A DNA stretch of 64,000 nt from Arachidicoccus soli (GTDB taxonomy: Bacteria; Bacteroidota; Bacteroidia; Chitinophagales; Chitinophagaceae): assembly GCF_003600625.1 (NCBI RefSeq), contig NZ_CP032489.1, positions 248,001 to 312,000 of the forward strand. Reading direction: 5' to 3'. Positions 28,437 through 49,492 of this stretch are shown here, in pieces. The notes below the pieces were generated by a model. That model saw nothing but the letters and a program-made list of their open reading frames with translations, did no database searches and was not told where the DNA came from. The stretch's first letter is position 1, and each line of letters begins with the position of its first letter. Made by a program: the position numbers and the translations under genes.

Positions 28437-28547
28437 GTTTAAAAAATTATGGGCTGTTGAAAATAAAAAAGGGGTAGTGGTCTTGGACAACGTTGATGAA
28501 ATAAGTGTGTTCATTCCTAATGATGTGATTTGCTTTCAATCTTTGAA

Positions 28548-29761: not shown

Positions 29762-30145
29762 TCCGCCACAGAACCTAACCTCTTAACCGGAATAGCTTAT
29801 ATCGAACTCCTTTAGCCTATTTTGTCTAATGTTAAGTTCTGCTAAGCAGAGAAACACGTTATCGTGCAAGTATGAAAATAGTTTTCATTTTTTTTGAAAA
29901 ATACAATTTTAAGGTACTATATCTCTTGTAATTAAAGAACAACTCTAAAGCCCCATATTCTAATTTAAAGGTGCTATATTCCAATATAAACAGCCATTTC
30001 GTCGTTTATTGTGCTAGTTAAAATAATGACAATGAATTACGACGTATTTTTTTGAAAAAAACGAACAATCGTTTGCGTGATAAGAGTTGTTAAAATGTAT
30101 TTACATTTGTGTTAAGAGTATTTTAATTTTTAATAAACCAAGATT
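29762..30145. other. Regulatory region upstream of susC
   Basis: No gene. Small hairpin TCTGC/GCAGA near 29,838-29,850. AT-rich, with a -7 box TACATTTG at 30,102-30,109 and no matching TTTG at the normal -33 spacing. No sigma/anti-sigma gene precedes susC, unlike many Bacteroidota susCD loci. The region is the natural place to look for a target of the island's guide RNA; I found no clear match by eye. Confidence 0.45.
30102..30109 (+). promoter_or_regulatory. -7 box of the susC operon promoter
   Basis: TACATTTG matches TAnnTTTG, 36 nt before the susC ATG. The -33 element is poor, which suggests weak basal activity. Confidence 0.42.
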
Positions 30146-33370: not shown

Positions 33371-33415
33371 GAGTTTAGCGAATCATAGTTTTCAAATAGT
33401 AAAAATGACAAACGA

Positions 33416-34990
33416 ATGAAACATTTCCTTTTTTTTAAAAAACTGCTCATAATATTTTTAATAAGTATAGCTCTTTTGGGAATTACTTCGTGCAATAAGC
33501 AGCTTCATGAAGGCCCAATAGGGTCAACATATAGTAGTGAGTTTTGGACATCACAAACTGCAGCTGATGAGGCAACTGCTGCAATGTATGGTCAGTTAAG
33601 AGCTAGCCTCAGGGCCTCTTCTGGTTCAGGAGTAGATCAAGGTGAAGCTTGCTATTTTGTTTATGGCGATTTAGTAAGTGACTTATTTAGATACGCTGGA
33701 GGAGATACTTTTCTCCAATATGGATTAACTAGTGATGGGAAAATTCCTTGGAATTTCTCTTATGTACCTTACTGGAACAATTTAACGGATTGGTCAAGGT
33801 TTTATCAAGTAATAGCACTCTGTAATCTTATTATAGAAAATGTAAATAAGATGAATAATTCTTTATTTACAAGTGTGGAAAAAAAGAATGCTTACGTAGC
33901 TGAAGCTTTATTTGTAAGAGCTTATACCTATTTCTTTATTACTAGAGTTTGGGGAGACCCTGTTTATGTTGCTAAAACATATAATGATGTTGATTATGGA
34001 CATATTCCGCCAATTCCTCGTTCTCCAGAAAATCAAGTTCTAGATAGCTGTATTAGAGATTTACGTATTGCAGATGCCAATTTAGATTATGCCAATGGAG
34101 ATATTACCCAAAGTGTTACTGCCAATAAGGGAAGCGTAGAGGCACTAATGGCTCATATATTTGAATGGCAGCACAATTATGATAGCGCTCATTATTATTG
34201 CCAACAGGTAATCAACAATGGAGGCTATTCCTTAGAACCAATGAGTACTTACAAAAATATATGGAAAGGTGAATCTTCCAATGAAAGTATTTTTGAAATA
34301 TCAATGCAGTACAACGCAAATGATCCTAATTTCAATTCGCAAGGAAGTTTTGCAGAAGCCACTTTCTCTTTTTTTGGTGGATTCTTAAAGGGTGCTATCG
34401 TAAATCAAAGAAGAACAAGTTGTTGGATTGCACCAACCGGCGGACTTGTAGACGCTGTATTATTTGACACATCCAAGGATTTGCGAGCCAAATCGATTTT
34501 GTCTTATCAACAGGCTTCTGGCGGAGACCCTGCAGGTTATATGCTAACTAAATATAGCAATTTCCAAACTACAGCTACCTCAAGTCCATATATCAATAAT
34601 AATCTTGTGATTTTCAGGCTTTCAGATATCTATTTACTAGATGCCGAAGCGCTTGCTTATAAAGGAGATTTAACTGGTGCGGCAAATGATCTTAAAATGA
34701 CTGAAGATAGAGCAGGTATAAACAATTATCAAAGTATTAGTGACCAATATAATATGCTAGATGAAGTAGTAATGGAAAGGGGGCGTGAGCTTATTGGGGA
34801 AGGGCAATGGTTTTACGATTTGATTAGAACTAATCAAACACAACAATGGTTGCAATACATTAATTATCCAAGCACACGTGTAAATACAACAAACAAAGGG
34901 TATTATTGGCCAATTGATATGAGTACCTTATTTCCTTATGATAATTTATTAACACAAAATCCTTGGTGGAATAATAATAGTGGTCGATAA
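33416..34990 (+). CDS. SusD/RagB-type nutrient-binding lipoprotein
   Basis: A 524-aa surface lipoprotein that forms the lid of the SusC transporter. Lipobox GITSC (Cys at about residue 27). The TPR-rich SusD fold is recognisable by SSEFWTSQTAADEATAAMYGQLR at the N-terminus, AEALFVRAYTYFFITRVWGDPVYV in the middle and the C-terminal block IFRLSDIYLLDAEALAYKGD... VVMERGRELIGEGQWFYDLIRT. It lies 45 nt after susC, in the standard order. Confidence 0.95.
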   Translation: MKHFLFFKKLLIIFLISIALLGITSCNKQLHEGPIGSTYSSEFWTSQTAADEATAAMYGQLRASLRASSGSGVDQGEACYFVYGDLVSDLFRYAGGDTFLQYGLTSDGKIPWNFSYVPYWNNLTDWSRFYQVIALCNLIIENVNKMNNSLFTSVEKKNAYVAEALFVRAYTYFFITRVWGDPVYVAKTYNDVDYGHIPPIPRSPENQVLDSCIRDLRIADANLDYANGDITQSVTANKGSVEALMAHIFEWQHNYDSAHYYCQQVINNGGYSLEPMSTYKNIWKGESSNESIFEISMQYNANDPNFNSQGSFAEATFSFFGGFLKGAIVNQRRTSCWIAPTGGLVDAVLFDTSKDLRAKSILSYQQASGGDPAGYMLTKYSNFQTTATSSPYINNNLVIFRLSDIYLLDAEALAYKGDLTGAANDLKMTEDRAGINNYQSISDQYNMLDEVVMERGRELIGEGQWFYDLIRTNQTQQWLQYINYPSTRVNTTNKGYYWPIDMSTLFPYDNLLTQNPWWNNNSGR

Positions 34991-35032
34991 ATTAAAAAAG
35001 TAACCAAATTAAAAAACTCAATTTTCATTGAA

Positions 35033-35761
35033 ATGAAAGCAAAAATAAATTTCCCTACTAAAATTTGCCTGTTCCTATTCATCACTATTTCGGTGATAGC
35101 TTGCAAAAAAAATTATATCATAGGAGGAAAGGTTGAAGATGTAAACAAGTATGCAAATATGACTTCTTATGATGTATTGAATAGCCTCCCGCAATTCGAT
35201 ACTTTGGTGCAGGTAATTGATGCAGCTGGACTAAAAGATAAGATAAATCAAGATAATTCCACTTTTTTTGCCATCAGCAACGGTTCAATTTTTAATTATC
35301 TTCAATTACGTACTCTTCTACTTCAATCAACGGTAAACCAATATGCTAAATTTACATTAGATTCCTTAAAATATTATTTACAAAATAATATTAATGGTAC
35401 GAAGGATTCATTATTGATGTATCAAGTAGCTACCACATTAACGACAAGTAATTTAACTAATAATGGTGCACAATATCCCTCGGAATTAATTGGAGACTCG
35501 GTTTTGGTGTCTTATGAAACTACATTAGATCCATTATTAGGATATACCACATTGGTTTCTACACCTCCAAGAGTTGTATATTTTGCTCAATTATGGAAAC
35601 ACTATAATTTAAATAGTAAAGATAGTACCGCAGCTAAATTACCTTCTACAACTGGAGTAAGAACTTTGGTTGGTACATCCTTCATTAAAACAAAAAACGG
35701 AATGATTAATGTGCTTCGTTCTGGAAGTACATTATTCTTTTACGGAACAAGGATTAACTAA
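35033..35761 (+). CDS. Fasciclin-like (FAS1) lipoprotein of susCD operon
   Basis: A 242-aa lipoprotein (lipobox VIAC, Cys about residue 24). Residues about 43-150 resemble a FAS1 domain: TSYDVLNSLPQFDTLVQVIDAAGLKDKI followed by STFFAISNGSIFNYLQ, the usual start of fasciclin repeats. Fasciclin-type lipoproteins accompany some SusCD pairs in soil Bacteroidota and probably sit on the cell surface with them. It lies 42 nt after susD in one transcript. The adhesive or ligand-binding role is inferred. Confidence 0.72.
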   Translation: MKAKINFPTKICLFLFITISVIACKKNYIIGGKVEDVNKYANMTSYDVLNSLPQFDTLVQVIDAAGLKDKINQDNSTFFAISNGSIFNYLQLRTLLLQSTVNQYAKFTLDSLKYYLQNNINGTKDSLLMYQVATTLTTSNLTNNGAQYPSELIGDSVLVSYETTLDPLLGYTTLVSTPPRVVYFAQLWKHYNLNSKDSTAAKLPSTTGVRTLVGTSFIKTKNGMINVLRSGSTLFFYGTRIN

Positions 35762-35778
35762 AATAAAAATGTTAAGAA

Positions 35779-36903
35779 ATGAAAAATATTAAAGTAAGCG
35801 TTTGGGCTAATTCCTTTATCATACTCATTTTATGCTCTATGATAATGTTAGGCTGTACCAAAATACAAAATGGCTTCCTAAGCCCGACAATGCAATATTC
35901 TACTCACTTATTTGTTGCACCTCAAGGACAGATTGCTAGTTCCAATTCGTTAGTTGCTGACGGTTCTAATCTTCCATTAAATGTGAAATGGACACATATT
36001 TATGATTCTTCTGGTAAGAATGTGGATGCAATGTTTTTAAAAACTTATCCGGTAGGGATATGGACACAATCATATAACCCACTTACCGACACAAGTTATG
36101 CCTCTATTGTTGCTAAAAGAACAACCGAAGAGTTACCCCCCTTTACCGTTAATTCTACAAGTGGTGTTATTAGCACCAATAGCGCAACTTTGTACATACC
36201 ATTGGGTACATATTCCTTGGATTTACAAGTAACTAACTCCGCGGGTACACAAGAATTAAAGAACGCTATATCGATAAAAATTGCCGCGGCACAACCAGTA
36301 CAGACAGCGGATGATGGGGGAATTGGTTCATTCAGTTTATCAAGATTAAATGCTGGTACCTCTGGAGGAGCAGCCACTCATAATGGTGTAACCTCAGTTT
36401 TCTATAATGGGAATTTTAATCCATTTGTAGTGTATAGCGTTAGAAGAATCTCAGACACACCTAATGTGATGATTATAAAAGTTACAGACAGGAATGGCGT
36501 TGTTTTCAATCCAAAGAAAGGTGAGATTGCAAAAAGACCCGCTGGTGGATTGAACCCTATACCGCCATACTTGCAAAATTTACAATATTATGCTCCAGAT
36601 ACTTTTCAGGCATTAGATTCCGCTCTTTATGTAAAATATCCATTAACTCCTTTTCCAATAGCATCTTTGGGAAATGGATTTAATATGTATTATATCATCC
36701 CTACACAATATGTACACATGGATAGTACCAAGTCCTGGAGCGGTAACTCGGCTGGCACATTCTACCAAGGTACTTCGGATTCCCATTATTTAGGCCAGTT
36801 TGGAGATAATCTTTATGATTATGCTTTAAGGATTCCTCTGAGAATTCAAACTCCTGGTAATTATTTCTTTCAAATCAAACTATTAGACGTAACACACAGA
36901 TAA
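35779..36903 (+). CDS. DUF5007-like lipoprotein of susCD operon
   Basis: A 374-aa lipoprotein (lipobox MLGC, Cys about residue 26) with a beta-rich body: VAPQGQIASSNSLVADGSNLPLNVKWTHIYDSSGK, GTYSLDLQVTNSAGT, and a C-terminal NYFFQIKLLDVTHR. It looks like the DUF5007 family that follows SusCD and fasciclin-like genes in other Bacteroidota; I rate this as likely, not certain. It is the last gene of the operon, 17 nt after the FAS1 gene, with a terminator 41 nt beyond its stop. Confidence 0.7.
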   Translation: MKNIKVSVWANSFIILILCSMIMLGCTKIQNGFLSPTMQYSTHLFVAPQGQIASSNSLVADGSNLPLNVKWTHIYDSSGKNVDAMFLKTYPVGIWTQSYNPLTDTSYASIVAKRTTEELPPFTVNSTSGVISTNSATLYIPLGTYSLDLQVTNSAGTQELKNAISIKIAAAQPVQTADDGGIGSFSLSRLNAGTSGGAATHNGVTSVFYNGNFNPFVVYSVRRISDTPNVMIIKVTDRNGVVFNPKKGEIAKRPAGGLNPIPPYLQNLQYYAPDTFQALDSALYVKYPLTPFPIASLGNGFNMYYIIPTQYVHMDSTKSWSGNSAGTFYQGTSDSHYLGQFGDNLYDYALRIPLRIQTPGNYFFQIKLLDVTHR

Positions 36904-38059: not shown

Positions 38060-38765
38060 ATGACAGAAAAAATATTGGACGATTTATTAAACATCTCCAC
38101 TGAAAATGAAGTAGTGGAATTTAAAGAAGCCAAAGCCCAATACAGTAAAGAAAAATTGGGCGAGTATTTTTCTGCGTTAAGCAACGAAGCCAACTTAAAA
38201 TCATTACCAACTGCGTGGTTAGTAATGGGTGTAAAAAAACGATAAAACAATAGTTGGTACACAAATTTCAGATGCCCAAATTAATGACTATAAATACGAA
38301 ATTACGCAACATACGTCGCCACGCTCTTCTTTTGTAGATGTACACAAAGTAATAAAAGAAGGTAAAACGGTTCTGTTGTTTGAGATAGCGCCTGCACCTA
38401 AAGGAATGCCGGTTAGTTGGAAAGGACATCGTTATGGTAGAGATGGCGAGAGCTTGGGCGCATTGAGCGATTTGGAATACGATGTGATTAAAGCGCAGGG
38501 TCAGCACAAAGATTGGAGTGCACAAATTGTCAAAGAGGCTACTATAAACGATTTATCCAAAGAAGCTATTGATTTTGCACGCATTCAGTACAAAGAAAAA
38601 AATCCCCAACTAAGAGAAGAAATAGATAGTTGGAGTGATACCCTTTTTTTAAACAAAGCAAAAATTACAATCAAAGGAAAAATTACGAATTCTGCTATTT
38701 TGCTTTTGGGTAAATTCCAACAGAAATTCAATAGAAAATTGAGACACATAGTGGGACGGATATAA
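38060..38765 (+). pseudogene. Broken AlbA_2 (Schlafen-like) ATPase-domain gene
   Basis: The N-terminal AlbA_2 domain is recognisable (NEVVEFKEAKAQYSKEKLGEYFSALSNEANL) but the frame breaks at about 38,232, where seven A replace an expected six in GVKNDKTIVG; the next frame continues with KTVLLFEIAPAPKGMPVSWKGHRYGRDG. The C-terminal half is lost after GKITNSAILLLGK at about 38,710. The intact gene of the same type lies at 43,022-44,689, so the island once held two copies or two related genes. Confidence 0.85.
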
Positions 38766-38989
38766 ATCGCTTTTCTCATTTAAAAGAATTGGATCTAAAA
38801 AATCATACCTCTTATTTCCTTGAATTTTTGCAGCCAGATAGATTACAAAAATACAACCTCTTGGAAGAAGCAGTATATGTATGTATGCGTGTTATTCTCA
38901 TCGCTCAAACTTTTTGAGTAGGTTGTGTGTATTATACAATAATCCGATCCATATTGAAATCAGCAACATTCCAAATACACCTATCAAAA
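38766..38989. other. Gene debris without identifiable function
   Basis: On the plus strand a codon-like stretch reads SHLKELDLKNHTSYFLEF then LQPDRLQKYNLLEEAVYVCM in one frame (about 38,776-38,890) without start or known match. It is probably the remnant of another gene joined here by deletion. Confidence 0.3.
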
Positions 38990-39238
38990 TTATTCATCTG
39001 AAATAAATTTAAAACCTAATATAGCTTTATCTGTCAGTTTATAAGCCTTAGCAATTTCAATTAGTGTACTAAATTGAATATCTATTTTTCCCTTTTCTAT
39101 TTTAGCCAATTTACTGTTATCAAGATTTGATAAATAAGAAAACTGTAAAAGATTGTCTTCTTTCAAAGTCTTTTCTCTTCGGTTCTTTAAATAAGCACCA
39201 AATTCTACTAAAAATTTATTTTTTTGATCATTGTGCAT
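38990..39238 (-). CDS. XRE-family helix-turn-helix regulator
   Basis: An 82-aa protein made almost only of a Cro/C1-type HTH: FGAYLKNRREKTLKEDNLLQFSYLSNLDNSKLAKIEKGKIDIQFSTLIEIAKAYKL. It is divergent from the sigma factor/dCas12f operon. A palindrome CGAATT-AGGCC-AATTCG lies in the divergent promoter 42 nt away, so it may repress that promoter and possibly itself. The link is inferred from position. Confidence 0.82.
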   Translation of the reverse strand: MHNDQKNKFLVEFGAYLKNRREKTLKEDNLLQFSYLSNLDNSKLAKIEKGKIDIQFSTLIEIAKAYKLTDKAILGFKFISDE

Positions 39239-39273
39239 TAGTTTATAAAGTTGCGTATATAAACAAAAAATAT

Positions 39274-39305
39274 TTTGGTCGAATTAGGCCAATTCGTTAT
39301 CTTTG
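39274..39305 (+). promoter_or_regulatory. Promoter with operator-like palindrome ahead of sigma/dCas12f operon
   Basis: TTTG (39,274-39,277), 20 nt, then TATCTTTG (39,298-39,305): a near-perfect Bacteroidota promoter. Between the boxes sits the inverted repeat CGAATT...AATTCG (39,280-39,296), a position where a bound repressor would block RNA polymerase. Transcription would start near 39,311 and give the sigma gene a leader of about 470 nt. Confidence 0.6.
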
Positions 39306-39778
39306 TTCTGGAATAGCAAAATTATTTTAAACTATTCATTTTAGAATCTTATTAGTGAAACGTAGGGGATTTCAATAAGTACAAATGCAATAAGTGAAAG
39401 GCTAGTGCATAATAGGTGCGGGTACTTCTAGAATATACTTTCTCTCACGACCTCGCTTATAGGTAAGTTGGTTTCGCGCTTTTGCTGTGTCTGCCGCGCG
39501 TTGCTTACTTACACCAAAGTTCGCGCAATTTTGGATGTTGTTTTCTTCTACATATAAAAGACATATTTCTTTAGAAAAATACCAGGAGCAAAAGTCATTG
39601 CATCGTGCAGTGGAATGCTTGTCCCAACTTATAGCCATTACAGTGAATAACGCAAGACAGCCCAAAGCACCTGTCTGACGAGCCAATCCACGGGCTTTGC
39701 AGACACGAAGTACATAATGGGACACCAGATTAAAACGCTGGTGTTCTATTTTAATCATCCATTATTTAATCTACATCA
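39306..39778 (+). other. Long leader of the sigma/dCas12f operon
   Basis: About 470 nt without a convincing plus-strand gene. Two hairpins are seen: AGACAG/CTGTCT (39,655-39,676) and ACACCAG/CTGGTGT (39,722-39,744), the second followed by a T-rich stretch 35 nt before the sigma start, so it could attenuate transcription. On the minus strand a 118-codon open frame (39,402-39,758, Cys-rich, KARGLARQTGALGCLALF) exists; I cannot tell whether it is a gene or chance. Confidence 0.4.
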
Positions 39779-40699
39779 ATGAGCTATAGGAATTTATTCG
39801 ACGATACACTGGAAAATCATGAGCTGGCCATTCGCTTTAAGAATGGGGAAGAGCAAGCACTGGCATATTTCTATACCAAGGCTTTCAAGCCTTTAGTTTA
39901 TTTTGGATGTAGGTATCTTAATGATGAATTTACTGTCTGCACCATTGTCCAAGAGGCCATTTTGAAGTTATGGCAACAACCATTCAGGGAAAAGATAGAG
40001 AGCATTTTTCATGCTTATTGCTTCATTCGTATCAACATACGTTGGCGTTGCTTATCATGGCACAAGAATAAAAAAAATGAATTTCTGAAACATATTCATT
40101 GTGACGAACATATAGATCGCTATGCAGAAATACCTCCCACAACAGCTTCGGAGAACGGTTACACCCAAAAAAAAGAAGAGTTATTACAAGCCATTGATAA
40201 AGTCATACCACTACTTCCACCTAATCAGGAGAACATTATGCGGCTGTACCTTAATTATGGTTATAGCTACAAGGAAATGGCAAAACGCTATACTACTTCC
40301 AATCAAAGAATTGCCAAAGAAATAAATAAAAGCATTGAAAGGGTTAAGAAAATTATTAACGCAGGAAAGCCCGCCGTAATATCCCAGCCAACAGTTAAAT
40401 ATACCAGCTTATTATCATTAAGCTTAAGTAATAAAAACGTGGCGGTGAAAGCTGGCCACCAGAATGATTATGAAGAAGTGTTGGACGGTACACGATTACA
40501 AATATTCAGATACCGTTATGAACAGAAAATGAGTTTTGGTGAAATTGCTGAAAGAATAAGTCTCCCCATCTGTGATGTACAGCAAGAATACCTCAAAGCC
40601 CACGAAATTATAAAAGGAATCAAAGAGCGACGAAAACATCGGTCAAATAATTTCAAAGCTAAACAGCTGAGTGGTAACTATAGAAGTCCTATTCATTAA
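39779..40699 (+). CDS. ECF-like sigma factor with an extra C-terminal HTH domain, partner of dCas12f
   Basis: A 306-aa sigma-70 family protein. A sigma2-like region covers about residues 20-95 (NGEEQALAYFYTKAFKPLVYFGCRYLNDEFTVCTIVQEAILKLWQ), and sigma4 about 135-192 (LPPNQENIMRLYLNYGYSYKEMAKRYTTSNQRIAKEI). Unlike ordinary ECF factors (about 170-200 aa) it has a second sigma4-like HTH at about 230-285 (GTRLQIFRYRYEQKMSFGEIAERISLPICDVQQEYLKAHEII). No anti-sigma gene is nearby. The Cas12f-like gene starts 22 nt after its stop. Bacteroidota sigma factors linked to nuclease-dead Cas12f have recently been described as RNA-guided activators; this gene fits by position and type. Confidence 0.85.
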   Translation: MSYRNLFDDTLENHELAIRFKNGEEQALAYFYTKAFKPLVYFGCRYLNDEFTVCTIVQEAILKLWQQPFREKIESIFHAYCFIRINIRWRCLSWHKNKKNEFLKHIHCDEHIDRYAEIPPTTASENGYTQKKEELLQAIDKVIPLLPPNQENIMRLYLNYGYSYKEMAKRYTTSNQRIAKEINKSIERVKKIINAGKPAVISQPTVKYTSLLSLSLSNKNVAVKAGHQNDYEEVLDGTRLQIFRYRYEQKMSFGEIAERISLPICDVQQEYLKAHEIIKGIKERRKHRSNNFKAKQLSGNYRSPIH

Positions 40700-40721
40700 A
40701 GAGCCGAAAATTCATCTACAT

Positions 40722-41816
40722 ATGGAGAAGAAAATAAATTTAACTAGAAAAATACAACTGGTCGTCGACAGTAAGGATGGTGACTTTATTGGTGAGGTAT
40801 ATACCAAGTTACGCAGTTGGCAGAATATTACTTTCCGTGCTGCTAATTTCATTGTTTCCCATTATTATGTACAAAGCCAATTGAAAGATTTTTTTTACTT
40901 GACGGAAGATATTCGTTACAAATTGGGTGATCAGAATAAAGATGAAAATGGGGCATTCATCACGTCTCGAATGAATACCTTCAATAGACTGCTTTCCCAG
41001 AAATACAAAGGACAGATACCCATTCAAAGTTTCGCTTCACTTATCAATAACTTATTTCCTATACTGAATAAGCAAAGCGCAGAATATTGGAGTGGAGAAC
41101 GTTCGGTATCCAACTTTAAAAGAGATGCACCCATCTATGTACCTTCCAGAGATATTCGCCATATAAAAGCAACGGAGGATGGGAGAAACTTTCGTTTTGA
41201 CATATTCTCCATCCCCTTCAGGACTTATTTCGGCAGGGATTTCCATGACAAACGCCAGTTATTTGAAGATGCTTGTAAGGGGAAAATTAAACTTTGTGCA
41301 AGCACGATCAAAATTGAGTCAAAAAAAATATTCCTGTTAACAAGCTTCCAAGTAGAACAGCAAAAAACGGCAGTTGATAAAAATATTATTGCAGAAGCTT
41401 CTTTATCATTGGAATATCCGGTAGTAGTCACCATTGGTAAATATAAATATCAGATAGGTAACAAAGAAGAATTCCTATACCGTCGTCTAGCTATACAAGC
41501 CGCTAGACTGAGAAATTTAAAAAGTGCCAAATATAATCATGGCGGCAAAGGAAGGGAAAAGAAATTAAAAAATGTAATCCGTTTGGATGGTAAGGAGAAA
41601 TCATATGTAGATTATAAGCTTCACCTATATAGTCGCAGACTCATTGACCTATGCATCAAGCATGGGGCGGGCACTCTATTACTTACTGAACAACAGGAAA
41701 AAGAAGAAGTAGCCAAGGAGGATGTATTTTTATTGCGCAACTGGTCTTATTATGGCTTGAAGCAAAAAATCGAATATAAGGCAGAAAGGTTGGGCATCAT
41801 GATTATAAATGAATAA
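40722..41816 (+). CDS. Nuclease-dead, compact Cas12f-like RNA-guided DNA-binding protein
   Basis: A 364-aa protein from the ATG at 40,722 (an upstream in-frame GTG/ATG extension would overlap the sigma gene). The N-terminal half, with KINLTRKIQLVVD and SGERSVSNFKRDAPI, and the FRTYFGRD segment resemble Cas12f recognition domains. The RuvC region is altered: where GIDLG should give the first catalytic Asp the protein has ASLSLEYPVVV (Ser229), RuvC-II is LLLTEQQ with Glu323, and the chain ends at GIMIINE after NWSYYGLKQKIEYKAERLG, before the zinc ribbon and the RuvC-III Asp. It should bind guide and target but not cut. No cas1, cas2 or transposase tnpA accompanies it. TnpB-like origin cannot be excluded. 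Confidence 0.85.
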   Translation: MEKKINLTRKIQLVVDSKDGDFIGEVYTKLRSWQNITFRAANFIVSHYYVQSQLKDFFYLTEDIRYKLGDQNKDENGAFITSRMNTFNRLLSQKYKGQIPIQSFASLINNLFPILNKQSAEYWSGERSVSNFKRDAPIYVPSRDIRHIKATEDGRNFRFDIFSIPFRTYFGRDFHDKRQLFEDACKGKIKLCASTIKIESKKIFLLTSFQVEQQKTAVDKNIIAEASLSLEYPVVVTIGKYKYQIGNKEEFLYRRLAIQAARLRNLKSAKYNHGGKGREKKLKNVIRLDGKEKSYVDYKLHLYSRRLIDLCIKHGAGTLLLTEQQEKEEVAKEDVFLLRNWSYYGLKQKIEYKAERLGIMIINE

Positions 41817-41876
41817 AAAGAAAATAAAAGATCATATCAGAATAATTGACGAATAGGGATAACAGTTCCACAAAAG

Positions 41877-41889
41877 TTCTTTGACATAA
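41877..41889 (+). promoter_or_regulatory. boxA-like element before the guide RNA
   Basis: GTTCTTTGACATA shares TCTTTGACATA with the boxA-like element of the 23S leader at 1461. It lies 60 nt after dcas12f and 6 nt before the first scaffold hairpin. BoxA/Nus antitermination is known to protect untranslated RNAs, including rRNA and CRISPR arrays, from early termination. Confidence 0.55.
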
Positions 41890-41894
41890 TAATG

Positions 41895-42003
41895 AGGCTG
41901 CCTGTTCAGCCGTAGGGTGAGGTACAATGTTGCACTCACCGAGACTTTTTTTTAAAAAAATTTACAGCTGGAATCCAATATAGCCAATACCATCCATTAG
42001 CGG
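41895..42003 (+). ncRNA. Cas12f guide-RNA scaffold (tracrRNA-like) with anti-repeat
   Basis: The RNA starts with two adjacent hairpins: GGCTG/CAGCC (41,896-41,911, loop CCTGTT) and GGTGAG/CTCACC (41,916-41,940). A GGCTG/CAGCC hairpin followed by a second stem is also the core of known Cas12f1 tracrRNAs. After a T8A7 stretch comes an anti-repeat: CCAATACC at 41,984-41,991 and ATTAGCGGG at 41,995-42,003 can pair with GGAAATTGG and CCCGTTTAAT of the downstream repeats, in the correct antiparallel order, with a bulge and a small internal loop. Ends are estimates. Confidence 0.72.
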
Positions 42004-42087
42004 GTCAACTATAAGTTTCCATAAATACTTAAGTTGGCAGCGTCTGCACAAATACGAAAAACAGTATTCAATTAAATTTTTAAAATA

Positions 42088-42260
42088 TCATTCCAGTCAA
42101 ACAATAAGCAGCCCGTTTAATCTAACCAAAAGGAAATTGGAACGACACTGCATTTTTAAATAATTATATAGAATGAATCATTTCAAACAGTAAAAATCCC
42201 GTCTAATCTAATCCATCCTCTTAAAAAAAGGAAATTGGGCTACTCTTTATTCTTTTGCTG
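42088..42260 (+). CRISPR. Degenerate two-unit repeat-guide array of the dCas12f locus
   Basis: Unit A (42,088-42,140) and unit B (42,178-42,239) share, in order, TCATTYCA..AAACARTAA, CCCGTYTAATCTAA and AAAAGGAAATTGG; B has about 12 extra bases before the last block. Guide 1 starts right after unit A (AACGACACTGCATTTTTAAA, 42,141 on; 37 nt to unit B). Guide 2 starts after unit B (GCTACTCTTTATTCTTTTGC, 42,240-42,259). Sequences diverge at once after TTGG, as expected for guides. No adaptation genes and only two units, so a fixed guide source and not an immune array. Confidence 0.68.
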
Positions 42261-42261
42261 G

Positions 42262-42683
42262 ATGCAACGTAGGGCGGTTATTTTATATGAAAGCGATAAT
42301 GCCGTTGATAAGTTACCGGAACCGACTCATAATATTAAACTATATGAAAATCAGGTCTATCAATTCTTTTTAAATAACCCCAATTATGAGAATTACACTG
42401 AAATTAAACTTTCTCCACTGCCCAAAAAGAGCGCCGCGAGTTCGAAGGCAGCTCAAAAAGTGAATATACATTAAGCGCAGAATTACAATATAGAATGGCA
42501 AGATTTCTCCATGAACACGGAGCTAAGGCAGCCAATGTGTGTATCAGGGAAGCTTTTCTGGAATATATTTTGGCTGTTACAGAAGTAGGAGTTCCAAATG
42601 AGTTTAATGATACTTTATGGGACTTTGAAGAATTAATGCAGTTCTTCGACATTGCGGAAAATGTGGTTACATCATCAGAATAA
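42262..42683 (+). pseudogene. Possible frameshifted gene downstream of the guide array
   Basis: From ATG 42,262 a coding-like frame runs QRRAVILYESDNAVDKLPEP... NYTEIKLSPLPK, then near 42,424 in an A5 run the sense passes to the -1 frame: ERREFEGSSKSEYTLSAELQYRM and on through ARFLHEHGAKAANVC to the stop at 42,683. Joined, this gives about 140 aa. The alternative is two small genes, 42,262-42,474 and 42,495-42,683 (62 aa). No family recognised. It begins 2 nt after the end of guide 2, so it may be unrelated flanking sequence. Confidence 0.45.
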
Positions 42684-42710
42684 AACAATGACTTTAAAAT
42701 TGTATATTTT

Positions 42711-42839
42711 ATGAGTAGAGAAATAAATGCATTTTTATCCAGAATGCAGAGAGCCATTGATTACAGGAAGATGGCTTATAAGAACATGGATCCTCAATCA
42801 AGGGAGCATATTTTGTACTTCACTTTGGTTCAATCCTAA
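42711..42839 (+). CDS. Small protein of 42 aa, uncertain
   Basis: ATG at 42,711, MSREINAFLSRMQRAIDYRK... ending HILYFTLVQS. Charged, helical in appearance, 27 nt after the previous frame and in the same direction. Codon use looks like that of its neighbours. No known domain. Confidence 0.4.
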   Translation: MSREINAFLSRMQRAIDYRKMAYKNMDPQSREHILYFTLVQS

Positions 42840-43021
42840 AATTAATAGTCAAAAAGTAATTGTTTATTAAAACAGTACCTCCACCCAAATAACTTAATAC
42901 CTTTGATAATAATTGCTAAGCAAATTAATATATTTGTTGACTAGTGGCGGCTTACAGAAAGACGCTTAAAGCAAAATATAAAAACAACGAAACTATTTAC
43001 TATAAATAGAATATTAATTAA

Positions 43022-44689
43022 ATGGATAATCAGGAACTCATAAATCTCATTGATGAACTAAGAGCCTTACCTAAGGAAACGGAATGGGTGGAGTTTAAAC
43101 TAAACACAATTAAGCCAAATGAAAAATTAGGCGAATACATTTCTGGCCTATCAAATGCTGCTTGCGTAAACAATCAGTCTTTTGCTTATTTGATTTTGGG
43201 TGTTGATGACAATGACCATTCTATAAAAGGTACTACATACAATTTTAAACAGCAGAAGCAGGGCAATGAAGATTTAGAATTTTGGATTAGAAGATACCTT
43301 TCTCCTTCCATTCGTTTTGAGTATTTTGAATGCCAATATGGTGGCCACACAAAAATTGAAATTTTTAGAATACTGGCAACAATTGGTGAACCTACTAATT
43401 TTCAAAACAAAGCGTTTATTCGTTTAGCGACTTCTTTAACCCAGCTCAAAGATTATCCGCATTACGCTAAAATAATTTATAATTCTCAAGAGGACTGGTC
43501 TGCAAAAATTATTGACAAAGCCACTATTGTCGCATTAGATGAAAGTGCAATTCAAAAGGCGAAAGAGAAGTATAAGGAAAAACGAGTGGGCAAACCCTTT
43601 TATTCAGAAATTGATAATTGGTCAAATGCTTTGTTTTTAGATAGAGCCAAAATTACAATTGATGGAAAGATTACGAATACTGCAATTATTCTTTTAGGCA
43701 AACCCGAATCCGCTCATTTTATTTCTCCAAGTGTAGCACAAATCACTTGGAAATTAGATACCGACCAAAAGGCTTATGAACATTTCGGAATGCCATTGTT
43801 TCTAACAATCAATGATGTTTTAAAGCAGATAAGAATTGTTCGGCATAAGTTTTTCCCAAACAATCAACTGATTGCCACCGAAGTATTAAATTATGATACA
43901 GAAGTAATATTAGAGGGACTTAACAACTGTATTGCCCATCAAGATTACAGCTACAATTCACGAATTATTTTGACCGAAAAAGCGAATAAATTAGTTTTTG
44001 AAAATGCCGGTTCTTTCTTTGAAGGCAAAGCAGATGATTATTTATTGGGCGAAAAAACACCTAAAAATTATCGTAACAAATTTTTGGTAGAAGCAATGCT
44101 TAATCTCAATATGATTGATAGCCTTGGTTATGGAATTTTTAAAATGACAAAAAGCCAATATCATCGCTATTTCCCTTTGCCCGATTATACCAAGTCCAAA
44201 AGAGAAGAAGTAGTTTTAGAAATATATGGTAATTCCATTGATGAAAATTTCTCCAAATTACTCATTGAATACTTTAATGAAATCAATCTTTCCGAAGTGA
44301 TTCTTTTAGATAAAGTCCAGAAGACTTTACCCATAAAGGACGAAGCGGCTAAATTACTCAAAAAGAAAGGCTTTATCGAGGGAAGAAAACCCAATTATTT
44401 TATTTCTGCGCAAATTGCAGAACTTACCAATCAAAAAGCAGCATATACCCGAAACATGGGGCTTGATAAGGAAGTGCTGATGTCCTTTATTGTAAAACAT
44501 ATCGAAAACCATGGTTTTGCTACACGAGAAGAGATAGACTTGTTATTGTTAGATAAATTGCTTGATTATATTGATGATAAGCAACGCAAAAAGAAAATTG
44601 AAAATATTTTGCAGGAAATGAAAAAAGATAAAATCAAAAATATTGGAAGCAGAGGCTTCCCTAAATGGGTAATATTAGGGAGTGATTAG
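43022..44689 (+). CDS. AlbA_2 (Schlafen-like) and GHKL-ATPase domain protein
   Basis: A 555-aa protein often labelled ATP-binding or RecG-like regulator. The AlbA_2 domain spans about residues 14-135 (ETEWVEFKLNTIKPNEKLGEYISGLSNAACVN... YLILGVDD). A middle region holds AKITIDGKITNTAIILLGKP. The HATPase_c_4 part follows at about 285-390: EGLNNCIAHQDYS carries the conserved N-box-like Asn/His, then LVFENAGSF and RNKFLVEAMLNLNMIDSLGYGIFKM. A winged-helix C-terminus ends the chain. AlbA_2 proteins occur in regulators and in phage-defence genes; the role here is not settled. It is the intact relative of the broken gene at 38,060. Confidence 0.85.
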   Translation: MDNQELINLIDELRALPKETEWVEFKLNTIKPNEKLGEYISGLSNAACVNNQSFAYLILGVDDNDHSIKGTTYNFKQQKQGNEDLEFWIRRYLSPSIRFEYFECQYGGHTKIEIFRILATIGEPTNFQNKAFIRLATSLTQLKDYPHYAKIIYNSQEDWSAKIIDKATIVALDESAIQKAKEKYKEKRVGKPFYSEIDNWSNALFLDRAKITIDGKITNTAIILLGKPESAHFISPSVAQITWKLDTDQKAYEHFGMPLFLTINDVLKQIRIVRHKFFPNNQLIATEVLNYDTEVILEGLNNCIAHQDYSYNSRIILTEKANKLVFENAGSFFEGKADDYLLGEKTPKNYRNKFLVEAMLNLNMIDSLGYGIFKMTKSQYHRYFPLPDYTKSKREEVVLEIYGNSIDENFSKLLIEYFNEINLSEVILLDKVQKTLPIKDEAAKLLKKKGFIEGRKPNYFISAQIAELTNQKAAYTRNMGLDKEVLMSFIVKHIENHGFATREEIDLLLLDKLLDYIDDKQRKKKIENILQEMKKDKIKNIGSRGFPKWVILGSD

Positions 44690-45182
44690 GGATAGGCTTA
44701 AGCCCTTTTAGGGAAAGAAAATAGTGTATCTAATTGATATAAAGGTTTTATTCTTCCCTAAAAAGGTCTGAAATTTCTTTTTCTTTTCTAGTTAGATTAG
44801 GATTGAAACAATGATTTATGAGACCGTTGTTTTATTGTCTTCGCAATTTTTACTTGTAAAATGGGATAGGTGTTCTTTTTGAAATTGGAGTTTCAAAAGT
44901 CCAGATTTCAAAACTGTTAAAAAAAGAGTATAATTTCTTTAATCACATATTTAAGGAATGGTAAAAGATAGTTTAGGCTGTAAGTCTTTTTCTCAAAACA
45001 AATACTGGTAAGTTATCTTATCGGAATTCTGTCGCAGATTAGAATAGAGAAGGATGAAACCATTGGGGTTAAGTCTCTTTTATAGATTGCATTATGTTTT
45101 TTATTATATTTGTTTTTGCGAAAACTTTTATTGCTATATGTGTTAATGCCAAAATTTATAAACTCGAAAACTCGGATTGCTT
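44690..45182. other. Intergenic region before KAP NTPase
   Basis: About 490 nt, AT-rich, no open frame of note. It contains a -7 box TATATTTG at 45,105-45,112 that would start a transcript near 45,118, with a leader of about 65 nt for the KAP gene. Short TTTTTAGGGAAG-type repeats are seen near 44,705-44,765 but no clear terminator. Confidence 0.45.
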
Positions 45183-48100
45183 ATGATTAATAATCAAGAT
45201 GAAAAATCAAATGGTAACTATCCGAAATTTTTACCCAATCTTCCTTGCGGAGAAGACTTGTTTGAAGGAAAGTCACAGGATAAAATTGCTGATAATATCA
45301 TTACTGTATTACGTAATGTGAGCAGTTGTAAAATAATAGGCATTGATGGCCCATGGGGTTCTGGCAAGTCAAACCTTGTTCAATTAGTCGCAAAAAAGTT
45401 GAAGCCGCAATACCATTTTTTTATTTATGATGCATGGGGGCATCAAGAAGATCTACAAAGACGTTCCATTTTAGAAGAGTTAATCCAGGATCTAACAAAT
45501 GAACAAAATTCTATAATAGATGGTGACTGGCATGAGAAATTAAAAATACTTTTATCAAAACGTAGAGAAACTGAATCTAAAACAATACCTAAAATTAGCT
45601 ATGGCATTATAATCAGCATTATTGCAATCATAGCAACTCCTATATTAAAAGTCGCCGCTGATAGCCTAAGCCCTCAATCGTGGTGGCGTTTGCCTGTAGT
45701 TGCAATTCCAGCATTGGGAATGTTGGCCATATTTATTTATTATTTTAATGATGAGAGGAAAAAAGCTGGGAAGAAAGATAGCTTTAAAAGGGCTTTAACC
45801 AGATTTTGTACAATTTATCAAAATAGATTAGAAGAGGAAGTTAGAACGGAAGTAATCTCGGAAGAAGAGCCATCAGTGCGTAAGTTCATAAATTATATGG
45901 AAGATATTTCGAAAGATCTCCAACAAAAGAAACTTGTTATTGTTTTTGATAACATGGACAGATTGCCCCATACTAAGGTGCAGGAATTATGGTCTTCTAT
46001 ACACATTTTTTTTGCGGAAAATAAATATGAAAACATTAAAGTAATTGTTCCATTTGACAGGGCTCATATAAAAAATGCTTTCAAACAAGAAGATTTTGAA
46101 CAGGATAAAGATAATAAAATGAAACAAAAAAAATATGGTGATGACTTCATTGATAAGACCTTCAATATAGTTTATCGAGTATCTCCGCCTATTTTGTCAG
46201 ATTGGAAAAATTATTTTAAGATTCAATGGGATAGAGCCTTAGGAAATGGTAGTACTCATAAAACTAGCTTTAATAGTGTGCTTCAGATATATGACTTATT
46301 GGGTAAGGATGTAACACCTAGGCGTATTATTGCTTTTATCAATGAGTTTATATCAATAAAACAATTAATAGGCAATACTATTCCCGATGAGTATGTTGCT
46401 TTATTTATAGCAGGCAAGCCCAAGATTTCATTGCAACCCATAGATGAAATTATAAAGCCATCATACCTTGGTAGTTTAAGTTTTATGTATGAACATGATG
46501 AAGATCTTCCAAAATATATCGCTGCATTATTTTATCAAATAGATCCTGATAAAGCCATTCAAGTTATTTTTACTGATAAATTGAAATCCGCTTTAGATAA
46601 TAATGACGCAGATGAATTTAAAAAAATAAGCGAAATTTCAGAATTCTATGATGTTTTGGAGAAGGTGATTCCAGAAATTACAAATTCGCAAAATGCAATT
46701 GTTTGTTTAGGTTCAATTCAAAACGATAAAATAGGCACCCCTCAGCAAGTTCAGGGAATATGGGATTATTTGTATCAGAAAATTCAACCTCGTAATGATT
46801 CTCAACTTGCGGAGTTTCAACTGATCCTCCTAGAAAGAATGACTATACATAAGGAAGAGTATCTTAGGAAGATTATGAAGGAATTGAGATCTGCTGAAAA
46901 ATTCAATGTTTTAGATTATGTCGATAGTATTAATTCATTGAATGAAAAGTTTACTGATTTAGATGTGATTAATAAATTGATGACAAAAAAGATAGAAGCA
47001 GAGAGCTTTATTCCTTTTATTCAAAAAACAAAACAAAATTTTACACGCTATAAAATAACTTGTGAACAGGCTGATTTGAACTCTTATTTATCCAATCTTC
47101 CGATTAGTAATCATGGTTCAATAGATTATATTCCTTATTTGATGGAGAACTATAAATTAGAAACATTTTCAAGAAGAATTGAAGAGTTAATCAGTGCATC
47201 AGCTCCTCAGCAAGATTATAACACGCTGTCATCGTTATTTAGATTATATAAAGAACTCAATATTAGAAACAAGCCATTAAAAGTTAAATTGGATGATTCT
47301 GTAGTTCATGCTTTATATAACAATAATGAAGTGGAAGACGAATTTCACTATGATCTTATTGCAATGCGCATTGCTAAATTAGATAAATTTCAAACACCCT
47401 ATGCTCCCATTTTCGAGAAAGAACTAGAAAAAACAGATAAAGTTTTTGTTACGAAAATATCGGAAAGAATTGAATATTTTATAGGTTATGGAGATATATT
47501 GAAAGGGCTATTGACATTTAAGAGTCACACATTACTTATATCGGTAGCAAATAATCTCACGGTTAAATCTTATGGTTCATCATCAATGAATGTAGAAGAA
47601 TCCATCAAAATATTCGATGATATATGTAATATGGCAAATATTGACCCGCTAATATTAATTAAACGGCTAAATGCCTGGAAAAAATATGTTGACAAAATAA
47701 CGCCCCAAAATGTAAATTCTTATGTATCAATTTTTTTCTTAAAGAATGCGCTTGAAGAAAAATGTGAAATTACTGATCATTGCATTGATTGTGCAATTAA
47801 ATATTTAAATGCTCTTGGTACAGATAAATGGGAAGAGTCCTTCAAAGATTTTAATTCGTATGAATATCAACTTAGCCAAGTTTTAAATTATATATATTCG
47901 GTTGATGCTTTTGATGCGATAAAAAATATATTAAAAGAGATAGCTGAACAAACCGCTGCAATCCCCAATAAGGAATTATGGGAGCAGATGCTATCTAGAG
48001 TAAAAGGCCAAGGGAAAGACTTAGTAGCCGCTTTTAACGGCGTGAGGGATACATTTATTAGAGAAGATAATATTAATCCTGAGGTATTTAATTTTTTTGG

Positions 48101-48413
48101 TGACTGGTTATTTAAGTATTCGGATATGGATGAGCAAAAATCAAGTTTAAGGACAATTTTTAAAACTGAAATAATAAAGAATCAGGATAATCTAAATTTG
48201 ATCATTGAAAATAAAGATAAAATGTTGTCTATTATTGGTGCTGCTAAGGATGAGTCAAAGGATTTTAATGATTGCATAGAAGAAATGCTTAAAACAAACA
48301 ATGATACAAACTTCATCAGTTTTGCGAAATATATTGGAATTACCTGTACCGGAAGTTCTAATGATAATGAAGACAATGAAAGAGAAAAAGGGATTGATGA
48401 AGTAAAAGCTTAG
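45183..48413 (+). CDS. KAP-family P-loop NTPase with membrane helices
   Basis: A 1076-aa protein from ATG 45,183 (a TTG two codons upstream is also possible). The Walker A motif is GPWGSGKS at about residues 56-63. As in other KAP NTPases two membrane helices are inserted in the NTPase domain (about 139-160 and 169-188). Walker B is LVIVFDNMDRL at about 254-264, followed by the DFIDKTFNIVYRVSPP segment typical of the family. The C-terminal 600 residues are helical with no known domain. KAP proteins include PifA of plasmid F, which excludes phage T7. With the IetAS-like pair 70 nt downstream, a phage-defence role is likely but inferred. Confidence 0.85.
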   Translation: MINNQDEKSNGNYPKFLPNLPCGEDLFEGKSQDKIADNIITVLRNVSSCKIIGIDGPWGSGKSNLVQLVAKKLKPQYHFFIYDAWGHQEDLQRRSILEELIQDLTNEQNSIIDGDWHEKLKILLSKRRETESKTIPKISYGIIISIIAIIATPILKVAADSLSPQSWWRLPVVAIPALGMLAIFIYYFNDERKKAGKKDSFKRALTRFCTIYQNRLEEEVRTEVISEEEPSVRKFINYMEDISKDLQQKKLVIVFDNMDRLPHTKVQELWSSIHIFFAENKYENIKVIVPFDRAHIKNAFKQEDFEQDKDNKMKQKKYGDDFIDKTFNIVYRVSPPILSDWKNYFKIQWDRALGNGSTHKTSFNSVLQIYDLLGKDVTPRRIIAFINEFISIKQLIGNTIPDEYVALFIAGKPKISLQPIDEIIKPSYLGSLSFMYEHDEDLPKYIAALFYQIDPDKAIQVIFTDKLKSALDNNDADEFKKISEISEFYDVLEKVIPEITNSQNAIVCLGSIQNDKIGTPQQVQGIWDYLYQKIQPRNDSQLAEFQLILLERMTIHKEEYLRKIMKELRSAEKFNVLDYVDSINSLNEKFTDLDVINKLMTKKIEAESFIPFIQKTKQNFTRYKITCEQADLNSYLSNLPISNHGSIDYIPYLMENYKLETFSRRIEELISASAPQQDYNTLSSLFRLYKELNIRNKPLKVKLDDSVVHALYNNNEVEDEFHYDLIAMRIAKLDKFQTPYAPIFEKELEKTDKVFVTKISERIEYFIGYGDILKGLLTFKSHTLLISVANNLTVKSYGSSSMNVEESIKIFDDICNMANIDPLILIKRLNAWKKYVDKITPQNVNSYVSIFFLKNALEEKCEITDHCIDCAIKYLNALGTDKWEESFKDFNSYEYQLSQVLNYIYSVDAFDAIKNILKEIAEQTAAIPNKELWEQMLSRVKGQGKDLVAAFNGVRDTFIREDNINPEVFNFFGDWLFKYSDMDEQKSSLRTIFKTEIIKNQDNLNLIIENKDKMLSIIGAAKDESKDFNDCIEEMLKTNNDTNFISFAKYIGITCTGSSNDNEDNEREKGIDEVKA

Positions 48414-48483: not shown

Positions 48484-49488
48484 ATGAACCAAGCATTATT
48501 AACCAGACTTTTTAAAACTATTGAAGGGGATAAAAGTACTCCTTTGATAAAGGTTGCTTATAGTATTATTGAAGATGAAAAGAAAAAAGGCCATTTAAAT
48601 CTGGCAGATAGATTAAATGCAATTTTAAAAATAAATACTGAAAATTTCGATTCACAAGAATTTAAAAAGGTGCTAAAACCTATTAAATCAAATGTGATAA
48701 AAATACCGCTTGACAGAAGGTATCAGCTCCCCTTAGCAACTCATATTGAACATGATTTTTTAAGAAGAGAAATGGTATTATCTAAAAGTGTAGAAAGCAA
48801 GATTATCAGAATTGAAAAAGAACATCTTGCCCGAGAACGGTTAAAACATCATGGATTAAAATCAAGAAAAAAAATTCTTTTTTATGGCTCGTCTGGTTGT
48901 GGAAAAAGCATGGCAGCAGAAAAAATTGCATGGGATTTAGGATTGCCATTCTATAAAGTAAGATTTGATACAATTATTTCTTCATATTTGGGAGAATCAG
49001 CAGCAAATCTCCAAAAATTATTTCAGAGCGCAGAAGATTTCCCTTGCGTATTATTGTTAGATGAATTTGATATAATTGGAAAGCAAAGAGGTAGCAATTC
49101 GAAAGATGTTGGAGAAATTCATCGAATCGTAAATATATTATTAGGTCTTCTTGAAGAGTATGACGGAGAAGGTATTTTAATTGCAACTACAAATCTTGAA
49201 GGGAGTCTTGATGATGCCCTTTTTCGACGTTTTGATGATTTCATAGAATTACCTAGACCATCAGAAGCTGAAATAGCCATTCTTTTAGAACAATCTCTCT
49301 CAGCACTAAGGCTAAACAAGAATATAGACCTTGGAAACTATGCAAAGAAATTGCTTGGAATGTCATATGCAATAGTTGTAAAAATTGCTACTGACGCAGC
49401 CAAAAAAACTATTATTAATTCCCATAACGAAATTTCCGCTCAAGACCTAGATAGTGCTTTTGAAGAAAACAAAGTTATAAATAGGTAA
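48484..49488 (+). CDS. IetA-like AAA+ ATPase
   Basis: A 334-aa AAA+ ATPase: an N-terminal helical domain (1-100), then the ATPase core with Walker A GSSGCGKS (135-142), Walker B VLLLDEFD (about 189-196), sensor-1 ATTN, and arginine finger region ALFRRFDDFIELPRP. It lies 4 nt before a subtilisin-like protease gene. This two-gene arrangement matches IetA-IetS, first known from plasmid stability/incompatibility in Agrobacterium and later reported as a phage-defence pair. By analogy the ATPase is the partner that controls the protease. Confidence 0.85.
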   Translation: MNQALLTRLFKTIEGDKSTPLIKVAYSIIEDEKKKGHLNLADRLNAILKINTENFDSQEFKKVLKPIKSNVIKIPLDRRYQLPLATHIEHDFLRREMVLSKSVESKIIRIEKEHLARERLKHHGLKSRKKILFYGSSGCGKSMAAEKIAWDLGLPFYKVRFDTIISSYLGESAANLQKLFQSAEDFPCVLLLDEFDIIGKQRGSNSKDVGEIHRIVNILLGLLEEYDGEGILIATTNLEGSLDDALFRRFDDFIELPRPSEAEIAILLEQSLSALRLNKNIDLGNYAKKLLGMSYAIVVKIATDAAKKTIINSHNEISAQDLDSAFEENKVINR

Positions 49489-49492
49489 ATCA

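What the first reader, a model, noticed from the sequence alone, without database searches (positions are those of the whole stretch)
40722..41816. Cas12f-like protein truncated before the zinc ribbon and RuvC-III
The RuvC-I Asp position holds Ser229 (ASLSLEYP), and the chain ends right after NWSYYGLKQKIEYKAERLGIM, so the zinc ribbon and the third RuvC acid are absent. The stop is followed by a functional-looking RNA gene, not by leftover coding sequence, so this is a stable short form rather than a recent mutation. A minimal 364-aa RNA-guided DNA binder is unusual in size.
Basis: partly seen in the sequence, partly recalled or inferred. Interest (0 to 1): 0.75.

Follow-up and report, generated by a model that had tools for sequence, protein, structure and literature searches.

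The report
RNA-guided sigma factor with dead Cas12f
This is a naturally nuclease-dead, shortened Cas12f protein sitting between a partner sigma factor gene and its own guide RNA gene, almost certainly a new example of the recently described bacterial RNA-guided gene activation system rather than a new kind of protein.

Summary
ORF 40722-41816 encodes an intact 364-aa Cas12f-like protein that stops before the zinc ribbon and RuvC-III. The RuvC-I Asp position is Ser227, not Ser229; the RuvC-II Glu is lost too. The short form is the family norm: in 79 relative loci the chains, from match start to stop, are 340-373 aa. Its closest solved relative is 'Nuclease-deactivated Cas12f' of PDB 9n9c/9n9m/9n9o/9n9q, about 45% identical. 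The ORF 22 nt upstream (39779-40699) is an ECF sigma factor whose best solved match is RpoE of 9n9q, the 'RNA-guided transcription complex'. Downstream lies a guide RNA: scaffold 41894-41968 with a pseudoknot supported by covariation, guide from 41969, the only credible match in the genome. This is a new member of the known dCas12f-sigmaE RNA-guided transcription systems, here in a bacterium of the family of Puia (Chitinophagaceae). Its target stays open: the best candidate lies 104 nt upstream of a SusC gene (shuffle P about 0.04, uncorrected). In some relatives the guide matches a site upstream of their own sigma gene, suggesting RNA-guided autoregulation.

The parts
39779..40699 (+). ECF-type sigma factor (sigmaE partner), 306 aa, with an insert and a C-terminal extension relative to most aligned relatives
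   Evidence: TIGR02937 67.7 bits over cut-off 42.9, Sigma70_r4 36.4 bits over cut-off 24.1; best PDB sequence hit 9n9q_C RpoE E 2e-28; VIA Z 13.3, rmsd 31.5, 242 aligned to 9n9q_C, so domains match but not their arrangement; alignment A4
40722..41816 (+). dCas12f: nuclease-dead Cas12f homologue, 364 aa, without zinc ribbon and RuvC-III
   Evidence: PDB 9n9c_A E 6.1e-111; model pLDDT 81.1, pTM 0.66; VIA Z 31.4, rmsd 3.4, 352 aligned to 9n9m_A
41894..41968 (+). guide RNA scaffold: hairpin 1, hairpin 2, hairpin 3, and the 3' end (ACAGC) that pairs with the loop of hairpin 1
   Evidence: covariance model R1 E 1.1e-12 in the whole genome, next best E 2.95 (the window is one of the 41 sequences the model was built from); covariation
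41969..41988 (+). guide (about 20 nt, end not defined)
   Evidence: follows the scaffold's conserved 3' end as in relatives; boundary could be off by one or two bases
41876..41884 (+). GTTCTTTGA just upstream of the guide RNA, boxA-like (name recalled), perhaps part of its leader
   Evidence: TTCTTTGA lies within 60 nt upstream of 8 of 144 relatives' guide RNAs, about 0.6 expected
39635..39720 (+). hairpin-forming stretch upstream of the sigma gene
   Evidence: RNA fold of 39630-39725, -22.3 kcal/mol, z -2.4, 3 of 200 shuffles as good; relatives also carry inverted repeats there (read by eye)

Best explanation
A dCas12f-sigmaE RNA-guided transcription module. The dead Cas12f binds the downstream guide RNA and finds a DNA site by base pairing. 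It does not cut. It recruits the sigma factor encoded next to it, which brings RNA polymerase to start transcription downstream of the bound site. Shown here: gene anatomy, loss of the nuclease residues, relationship of both proteins to the partners solved together in the RNA-guided transcription complex 9n9q, and a covarying guide RNA scaffold. Inferred from that complex and from recalled literature: target binding, sigma recruitment, transcription start. Not shown: which gene this guide activates.
For: Best PDB matches of the two neighbouring proteins are two chains of the same complex: dCas12f of 9n9c/9n9m/9n9o/9n9q (E 6.1e-111; 2.1e-182 with the family profile) and RpoE of 9n9q (E 2e-28), entry title 'Cryo-EM structure of the RNA-guided transcription complex'. 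Predicted fold: 9n9m_A Z 31.4, rmsd 3.4, 352 aligned, above the Cas12f nucleases at about Z 27. Family: 201 relatives by tblastn, 80 kept; a sigma ORF directly upstream in 76 of the 79 loci in which an upstream ORF was found (20 of the 76 helped build the profile, so those match by construction). Guide RNA: 10 of 22 pairs with changes on both sides, 90 such cells, 0 of 500 shuffles for each of the five measures; in the window the pseudoknot pair of columns 9-79 is C-G where 38 of 41 have U-A; 148 model matches at E 0.01 or better in the 80 relative loci. RuvC acids lost.
Against: No convincing target: the first 16 nt with up to 2 mismatches find only the guide itself and 18 nt with up to 3 find no promoter-like site. 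The best SusC-upstream candidate has shuffle P about 0.04, uncorrected, and T, not G, before it. One pseudoknot pair (columns 13-75) is U-U in the window and hairpin 3 is mostly a U/A stem. A fold of 41860-42010 alone is no more stable than shuffles (z -0.20). The sigma is only distantly like that of 9n9q (26% in VIA) and its model's domain arrangement is uncertain (pTM 0.38). In NCBIfam the protein scores better with guided_TnpB (54.4 bits) than with Cas12f2 (18.4), both under their cut-offs.
Confidence: 0.92

Rival explanations
1. RNA-guided repressor: dCas12f works alone like natural CRISPRi or TldR, blocking a promoter, and the sigma gene next to it is an unrelated neighbour.
For: The nuclease acids are lost; a dead Cas12 bound to DNA would be expected to block transcription. 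TldR proteins are nuclease-dead TnpB-like repressors (PMC13418256, passages seen).
Against: A sigma ORF sits directly upstream in 76 of the 79 relative loci with an upstream ORF found, and homologues of both proteins are in one solved transcription complex.
Confidence: 0.04
2. Degenerate member (not exclusive of the best explanation): it belongs to the family and its genes are intact, but the module has lost its target here and does nothing at present.
For: A single credible guide RNA in the genome where some relatives carry up to 10 in one locus; no good genomic target; patchy presence: 10 of 394 genomes of the family have a hit, the window's own included, one of them only with weak TnpB-like hits, and three others only fragments or a broken copy.
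Against: Both ORFs are intact, and the scaffold keeps its pairs through a change on both sides, which argues for selection. Clear targets were not found either for two guides tested in three other genomes of the same family, though only 5 of the listed sites were looked at, so failing to see a target is weak evidence.
Confidence: 0.2
3. CRISPR-Cas type V-F immunity effector with a truncated but active nuclease.
For: Cas12f fold; PADLOC models name it Cas12u3 and Cas12f (E 1.3e-48 and 2.9e-47); defence genes nearby.
Against: RuvC acids absent; no CRISPR array just downstream (one search covers 41800-43020 only); the first 18 nt of the guide have no exact match in IMG/VR.
Confidence: 0.01

Closest known systems
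dCas12f-sigmaE RNA-guided transcription complex (PDB 9n9c, 9n9m, 9n9o, 9n9q; the three titles seen, 9n9c, 9n9m and 9n9q, are dated 2025-12-24)
   Same: Homologous dCas12f over the whole length (364 against 365 aa) with the same C-terminal end; homologous sigma partner; guide RNA.
   Different: About 45% identity for dCas12f and 26% for sigma; the window's sigma has a linker insert and C-terminal extension against most aligned relatives; target unknown. The papers behind the entries were not found in the library.
Cas12f nucleases such as AsCas12f, Al3Cas12f, CnCas12f1
   Same: Fold (Z about 23 to 27) and guide RNA plan (the last recalled).
   Different: They have the D-E-D set, zinc ribbon and RuvC-III (recalled; the first two acids seen in the alignments) and are 415-539 aa in the listed chains; the window protein lacks them.
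TldR, nuclease-dead TnpB repressors
   Same: RNA-guided, nuclease-dead DNA binders.
   Different: TnpB-like and repressive; here nearest to Cas12f, with a sigma factor gene.

Membership tests
dCas12f-sigmaE RNA-guided transcription system | dCas12f homologue over full length | tested here: met
   E 6.1e-111 to 9n9c over residues 5-362; Z 31.4, rmsd 3.4, 352 aligned to 9n9m
dCas12f-sigmaE RNA-guided transcription system | RuvC acids lost | tested here: met
   Ser227, Thr322, and chain end before RuvC-III
dCas12f-sigmaE RNA-guided transcription system | adjacent ECF sigma factor gene related to the RpoE of 9n9q | tested here: met
   39779-40699, E 2e-28
dCas12f-sigmaE RNA-guided transcription system | guide RNA encoded beside the genes | tested here: met
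   41894-41968, model R1 E 1.1e-12; the window row is one of the 41 sequences the model was built from
dCas12f-sigmaE RNA-guided transcription system | guide matches a site with 5'-G motif (recalled) upstream of a gene | tested here: inconclusive
dCas12f-sigmaE RNA-guided transcription system | recruits RNA polymerase and starts transcription at a fixed distance (recalled) | not testable with these tools
   needs a bench test
Cas12f nuclease (type V-F effector) | RuvC D-E-D catalytic set and zinc ribbon | tested here: not met
Cas12f nuclease (type V-F effector) | CRISPR array next to the effector | tested here: inconclusive
   only two weak two-copy repeats in 41800-43020; other stretches not searched for arrays
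TldR repressor | closer to TnpB than to Cas12f | tested here: not met
   dCas12f and then Cas12f chains lead the PDB sequence and fold lists; TnpB chains come at Z 19.4 and below. Against this, NCBIfam's guided_TnpB model outscores its Cas12f2 model, both under cut-off

The most novel reading that the evidence does not exclude
A natural programmable sigma factor that in part of the family is aimed by its own guide RNA at a site upstream of its own sigma-dCas12f operon (RNA-guided autoregulation), with guide-target matches of only about 10-14 nt; in this genome the single guide is aimed at a SusC-type nutrient receptor.
Probability: 0.3. Interest if true: 0.6.

Novelty: new member of a known kind. 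Interest (0 to 1): 0.4.

Why it matters
It adds a divergent member, from a complete genome of the family of Puia, to the systems in which a bacterium starts transcription where a guide RNA points. It also gives a covariance model for finding the guide RNAs (148 matches in 80 loci), from which guides and targets can be listed and tested across Bacteroidota. A guide matching upstream of the sigma gene in relatives would make feedback control of such systems directly testable.

Tried and rejected
Target search. The 16-nt guide with up to 2 mismatches finds only itself (control pattern 3). The 12-nt seed with up to 1 mismatch finds 32 places including itself (control 12); 18 nt with up to 3 finds 7 including itself (control 5). 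I classed 35 loci by ORF context (at least two sites occur in both sets, and the last two places had no locus). Only L107 and L109 overlap no ORF of 100 aa and have such an ORF ahead within 400 nt; L098, L114 and L132 have one ahead but overlap another; L101 and L115 are free of ORFs with none ahead. L107 (14 of 20 nt, first base mismatched, G before it) lies ahead of a 132-aa ORF. The one exact 12-nt match (L098) lies, antisense, in the start of the ORF L142 3926-4963. L109 = L144/L181 lies 104 nt upstream of a SusC start. Scored over upstream stretches of 56 SusC genes, it is best with 12 of 13 nt; 8 of 200 shuffled guides do as well. I did not correct this for the several searches made, so it is only a candidate.

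Calibration in relatives. Galbibacter (L064): the 13-nt guide has 3 exact matches, all three guide RNAs, plus 2 one-mismatch sites in a palindromic element upstream of ORFs, control 0. Two guides in three other genomes of the window's family: one pattern gave 3 places in 2 of 3 genomes (controls 10 in all), the other 41 in one genome (control 10); I looked at 5 of these sites. L203, L204, L206 and L207 lie in ORFs; L208 overlaps no ORF of 100 aa, has G before it and an ORF 343 nt ahead. None is a clear target.

Autoregulation test. Of 131 guides, 10 match the 420 nt upstream of their own sigma start over 11 nt or more with at most one mismatch and up to two first bases skipped, against 3 of 393 for three rounds of shuffles; 8 of the 10 are of the GCGTGGG type. 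8 of 17 loci with a CGTGGG guide carry CGTGGGC upstream of sigma against 6 of 56 others, Fisher P 0.0024, not corrected for relatedness. An earlier exact-match test over whole loci was hardly above its control (11 of 81 guides against 7.6 for shuffled guides).

Other dead ends. Rfam at E up to 1 gave only a chance-level mir-84 match (E 0.93, 18.6 bits against a gathering score of 60) at 39727-39772, none on the guide RNA. No relative by tblastn in plasmid records at E 1e-20 or phage records at E 1e-10. The first genome-contig scan with the single protein found none; the second, with an alignment, found 201. Folding 41860-42010 alone gave z -0.20.

Rows dropped. A2 holds 41 rows that I chose from 62 of the 81 regex hits (length 60-80, no duplicates, six early loci left out). 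The regex fixed GAGG, TGAG, CTCA and the 3' CA core and limited a few neighbours to two letters, so invariance there is by construction; pairs 5-16, 7-14, 12-76, 29-41, 30-40 and helix 4 were free on at least one side. Of the 148 model hits, 145 went into into (weak or partial ones left out); one search then scored 131. One search scored 150 of 1765 first-look candidates in the genome.

Full report
What is there. The open frame 40722-41816 codes for 364 aa. Searched against all PDB sequences its best hit is 'Nuclease-deactivated Cas12f', 365 aa, of entries 9n9c, 9n9m, 9n9o and 9n9q (E 6.1e-111, residues 5-362). A profile of 26 family members raises this to E 2.1e-182, with a Cas12f effector next at E 2.3e-59. 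An AlphaFold2 model (pLDDT 81.1, pTM 0.66) matches 9n9m_A at Z 31.4 (rmsd 3.4, 352 aligned) and 9n9c_A at Z 30.5, then Cas12f nucleases at about Z 27. Against this, no Pfam family is hit, and NCBIfam's guided_TnpB model (54.4 bits, cut-off 100) outscores its Cas12f2 model (18.4, cut-off 450).

Loss of the nuclease. At this column 20 of 26 family members have Ser and one has Asp. The RuvC-II Glu faces Thr322, next to a Glu323 that only the window has among the 26; two have Asp there. The chain ends in the first third of the Cas12f1-like_TNB profile (positions 1-21 of 60, E 0.34) and no match is listed after the stop. The three forward frames after the stop are broken by stops.

It is a family trait, not a recent truncation. 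An alignment of the window with six members found ends at nearly the same place in all seven. A wider scan gave 201 relatives, 80 of them kept, in Pedobacter, Sphingobacterium, Parapedobacter, Chryseobacterium, Salegentibacter and other genera. In 79 loci with a stop in reach, chains counted from the match start are 340-373 aa, 76 of them 358-365.

The partner. The ORF 39779-40699, ending 22 nt before dCas12f, is an ECF-type sigma factor (TIGR02937 67.7 bits against a cut-off of 42.9; Sigma70_r4 over cut-off). Its best PDB hit is 9n9q_C RpoE (E 2e-28), and 9n9q is titled 'Cryo-EM structure of the RNA-guided transcription complex'. So both neighbouring proteins have their best match in one solved complex. 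Of 79 relative loci with an ORF found upstream, 76 carry this sigma (20 of those were used to build the profile); all 23 members of alignment A4 match sigma70-ECF. The window's sigma carries an insert of about 20 residues before its last domain and a longer C-terminus than most aligned relatives. Its model has low confidence in domain arrangement (pTM 0.38).

The RNA. Near dCas12f in the relatives runs a conserved scaffold, mostly ending in UACAAC or UACAAU, followed by a variable guide; in most loci it lies downstream, in some (such as L044, L061, L070) upstream of the sigma gene. On 41 sequences, three hairpins and a pseudoknot between the loop of hairpin 1 and the scaffold's 3' end give 93.7% paired cells, 10 of 22 pairs with changes on both sides and 90 such cells. 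None of 500 shuffles reaches any of the five measures, and slid structures fall to 27-53% paired. The window has C-G where 38 of 41 have U-A in the pseudoknot. A covariance model finds 41894-41968 in the window's genome at E 1.1e-12 and nothing else credible (next E 2.95; 150 of 1765 candidates scored). In the 80 relative loci it has 148 matches, up to 10 in one locus. Read alone, the window's RNA does not fold better than shuffles; the support is comparative.

Target. The guide starts at 41969. Up to 16-18 nt with 2-3 mismatches there is no promoter-like match in the genome. A site 104 nt upstream of a SusC gene matches 12 of 13 nt; 4% of shuffled guides do as well over the same 56 SusC upstream stretches. 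It has T before it; the G motif that I recall for these systems would need a shifted guide start. I hold this as a candidate only.

Autoregulation in relatives. Several guides of the GGCGTGGG type match a site 164-198 nt upstream of their own sigma gene (8 of the 17 loci with such a guide). In 131 guides, 10 reach 11 nt or more against about 1 expected from shuffles. In Galbibacter the same site type recurs upstream of two further ORFs as a palindromic element. Relatedness is not corrected, 9 of those 17 loci lack the site, and 6 other loci, four of them Pedobacter, carry it with a different guide, which weakens the link.

Where it lives. The window's genome is one 4.10-Mb contig. Genome G381, called same family, has a contig of 1,989,534 bases, the length of the Puia dinghuensis contig that holds the same locus, so the window comes from the family of Puia, Chitinophagaceae (the family name is recalled). 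In that family 10 of 394 genomes have a hit, the window's own included, one of them only weak TnpB-like ones. The neighbourhood holds a relaxase, a transposase and defence genes, which suggests a mobile or variable region.

Verdict. A new member of the known dCas12f-sigmaE RNA-guided transcription systems. The mechanism is inferred from the solved complex and from recalled literature; the papers themselves could not be read (searches; look-ups). What was seen of other papers: passages of PMC13418256, PMC12803034 and PMC12908284 and search listings.

Noticed in passing
48484-51964: Adjacent AAA ATPase and subtilase genes match the IetA and IetS defence pair (PADLOC E 7.9e-71 and 2.3e-54).
   Followed up: no
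54500-55684: A gene matching the candidate defence family PDC-S01 (E 8.2e-89).
   Followed up: no
38060-48413: An AlbA_2/Schlafen-type gene (43022-44689) and a KAP-family NTPase (45177-48413) lie between the RNA gene and the Iet pair; two short ORFs, 38060-38245 and 38376-38765, read by eye like pieces of the former (Pfam finds nothing in the second).
   Followed up: no
26889-36903: Relaxase, transposase and a SusC/SusD pair upstream; the TCCAATATA of the guide also occurs before this SusC (by eye), a 9-nt match that I judged likely chance without a formal test.
   Followed up: partly
41876-41884: GTTCTTTGA ahead of the guide RNA, a boxA-like word (recalled); TTCTTTGA is found near 8 of 144 relatives' guide RNAs against about 0.6 expected.
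   Followed up: partly
L018, L030, L045, L049, L083, L086, L090, L091 and others, 122-204 nt upstream of sigma; L140, L141: Palindromic element GGCGTGGGCTC...GAGTTCCACGCC, or like it, upstream of sigma genes and, in Galbibacter, upstream of two other ORFs, one of which looks like an IS1595-type transposase (name recalled).
   Followed up: partly
L017, L020, L021, L046: Loci with 5 to 10 guide RNAs, each with its own scaffold and guide.
   Followed up: no
G000:C1, 12 places: The genome holds 12 places with an intact TnpB-type zinc ribbon, all with the same score and open frames of 388-396 aa, none near dCas12f.
   Followed up: no
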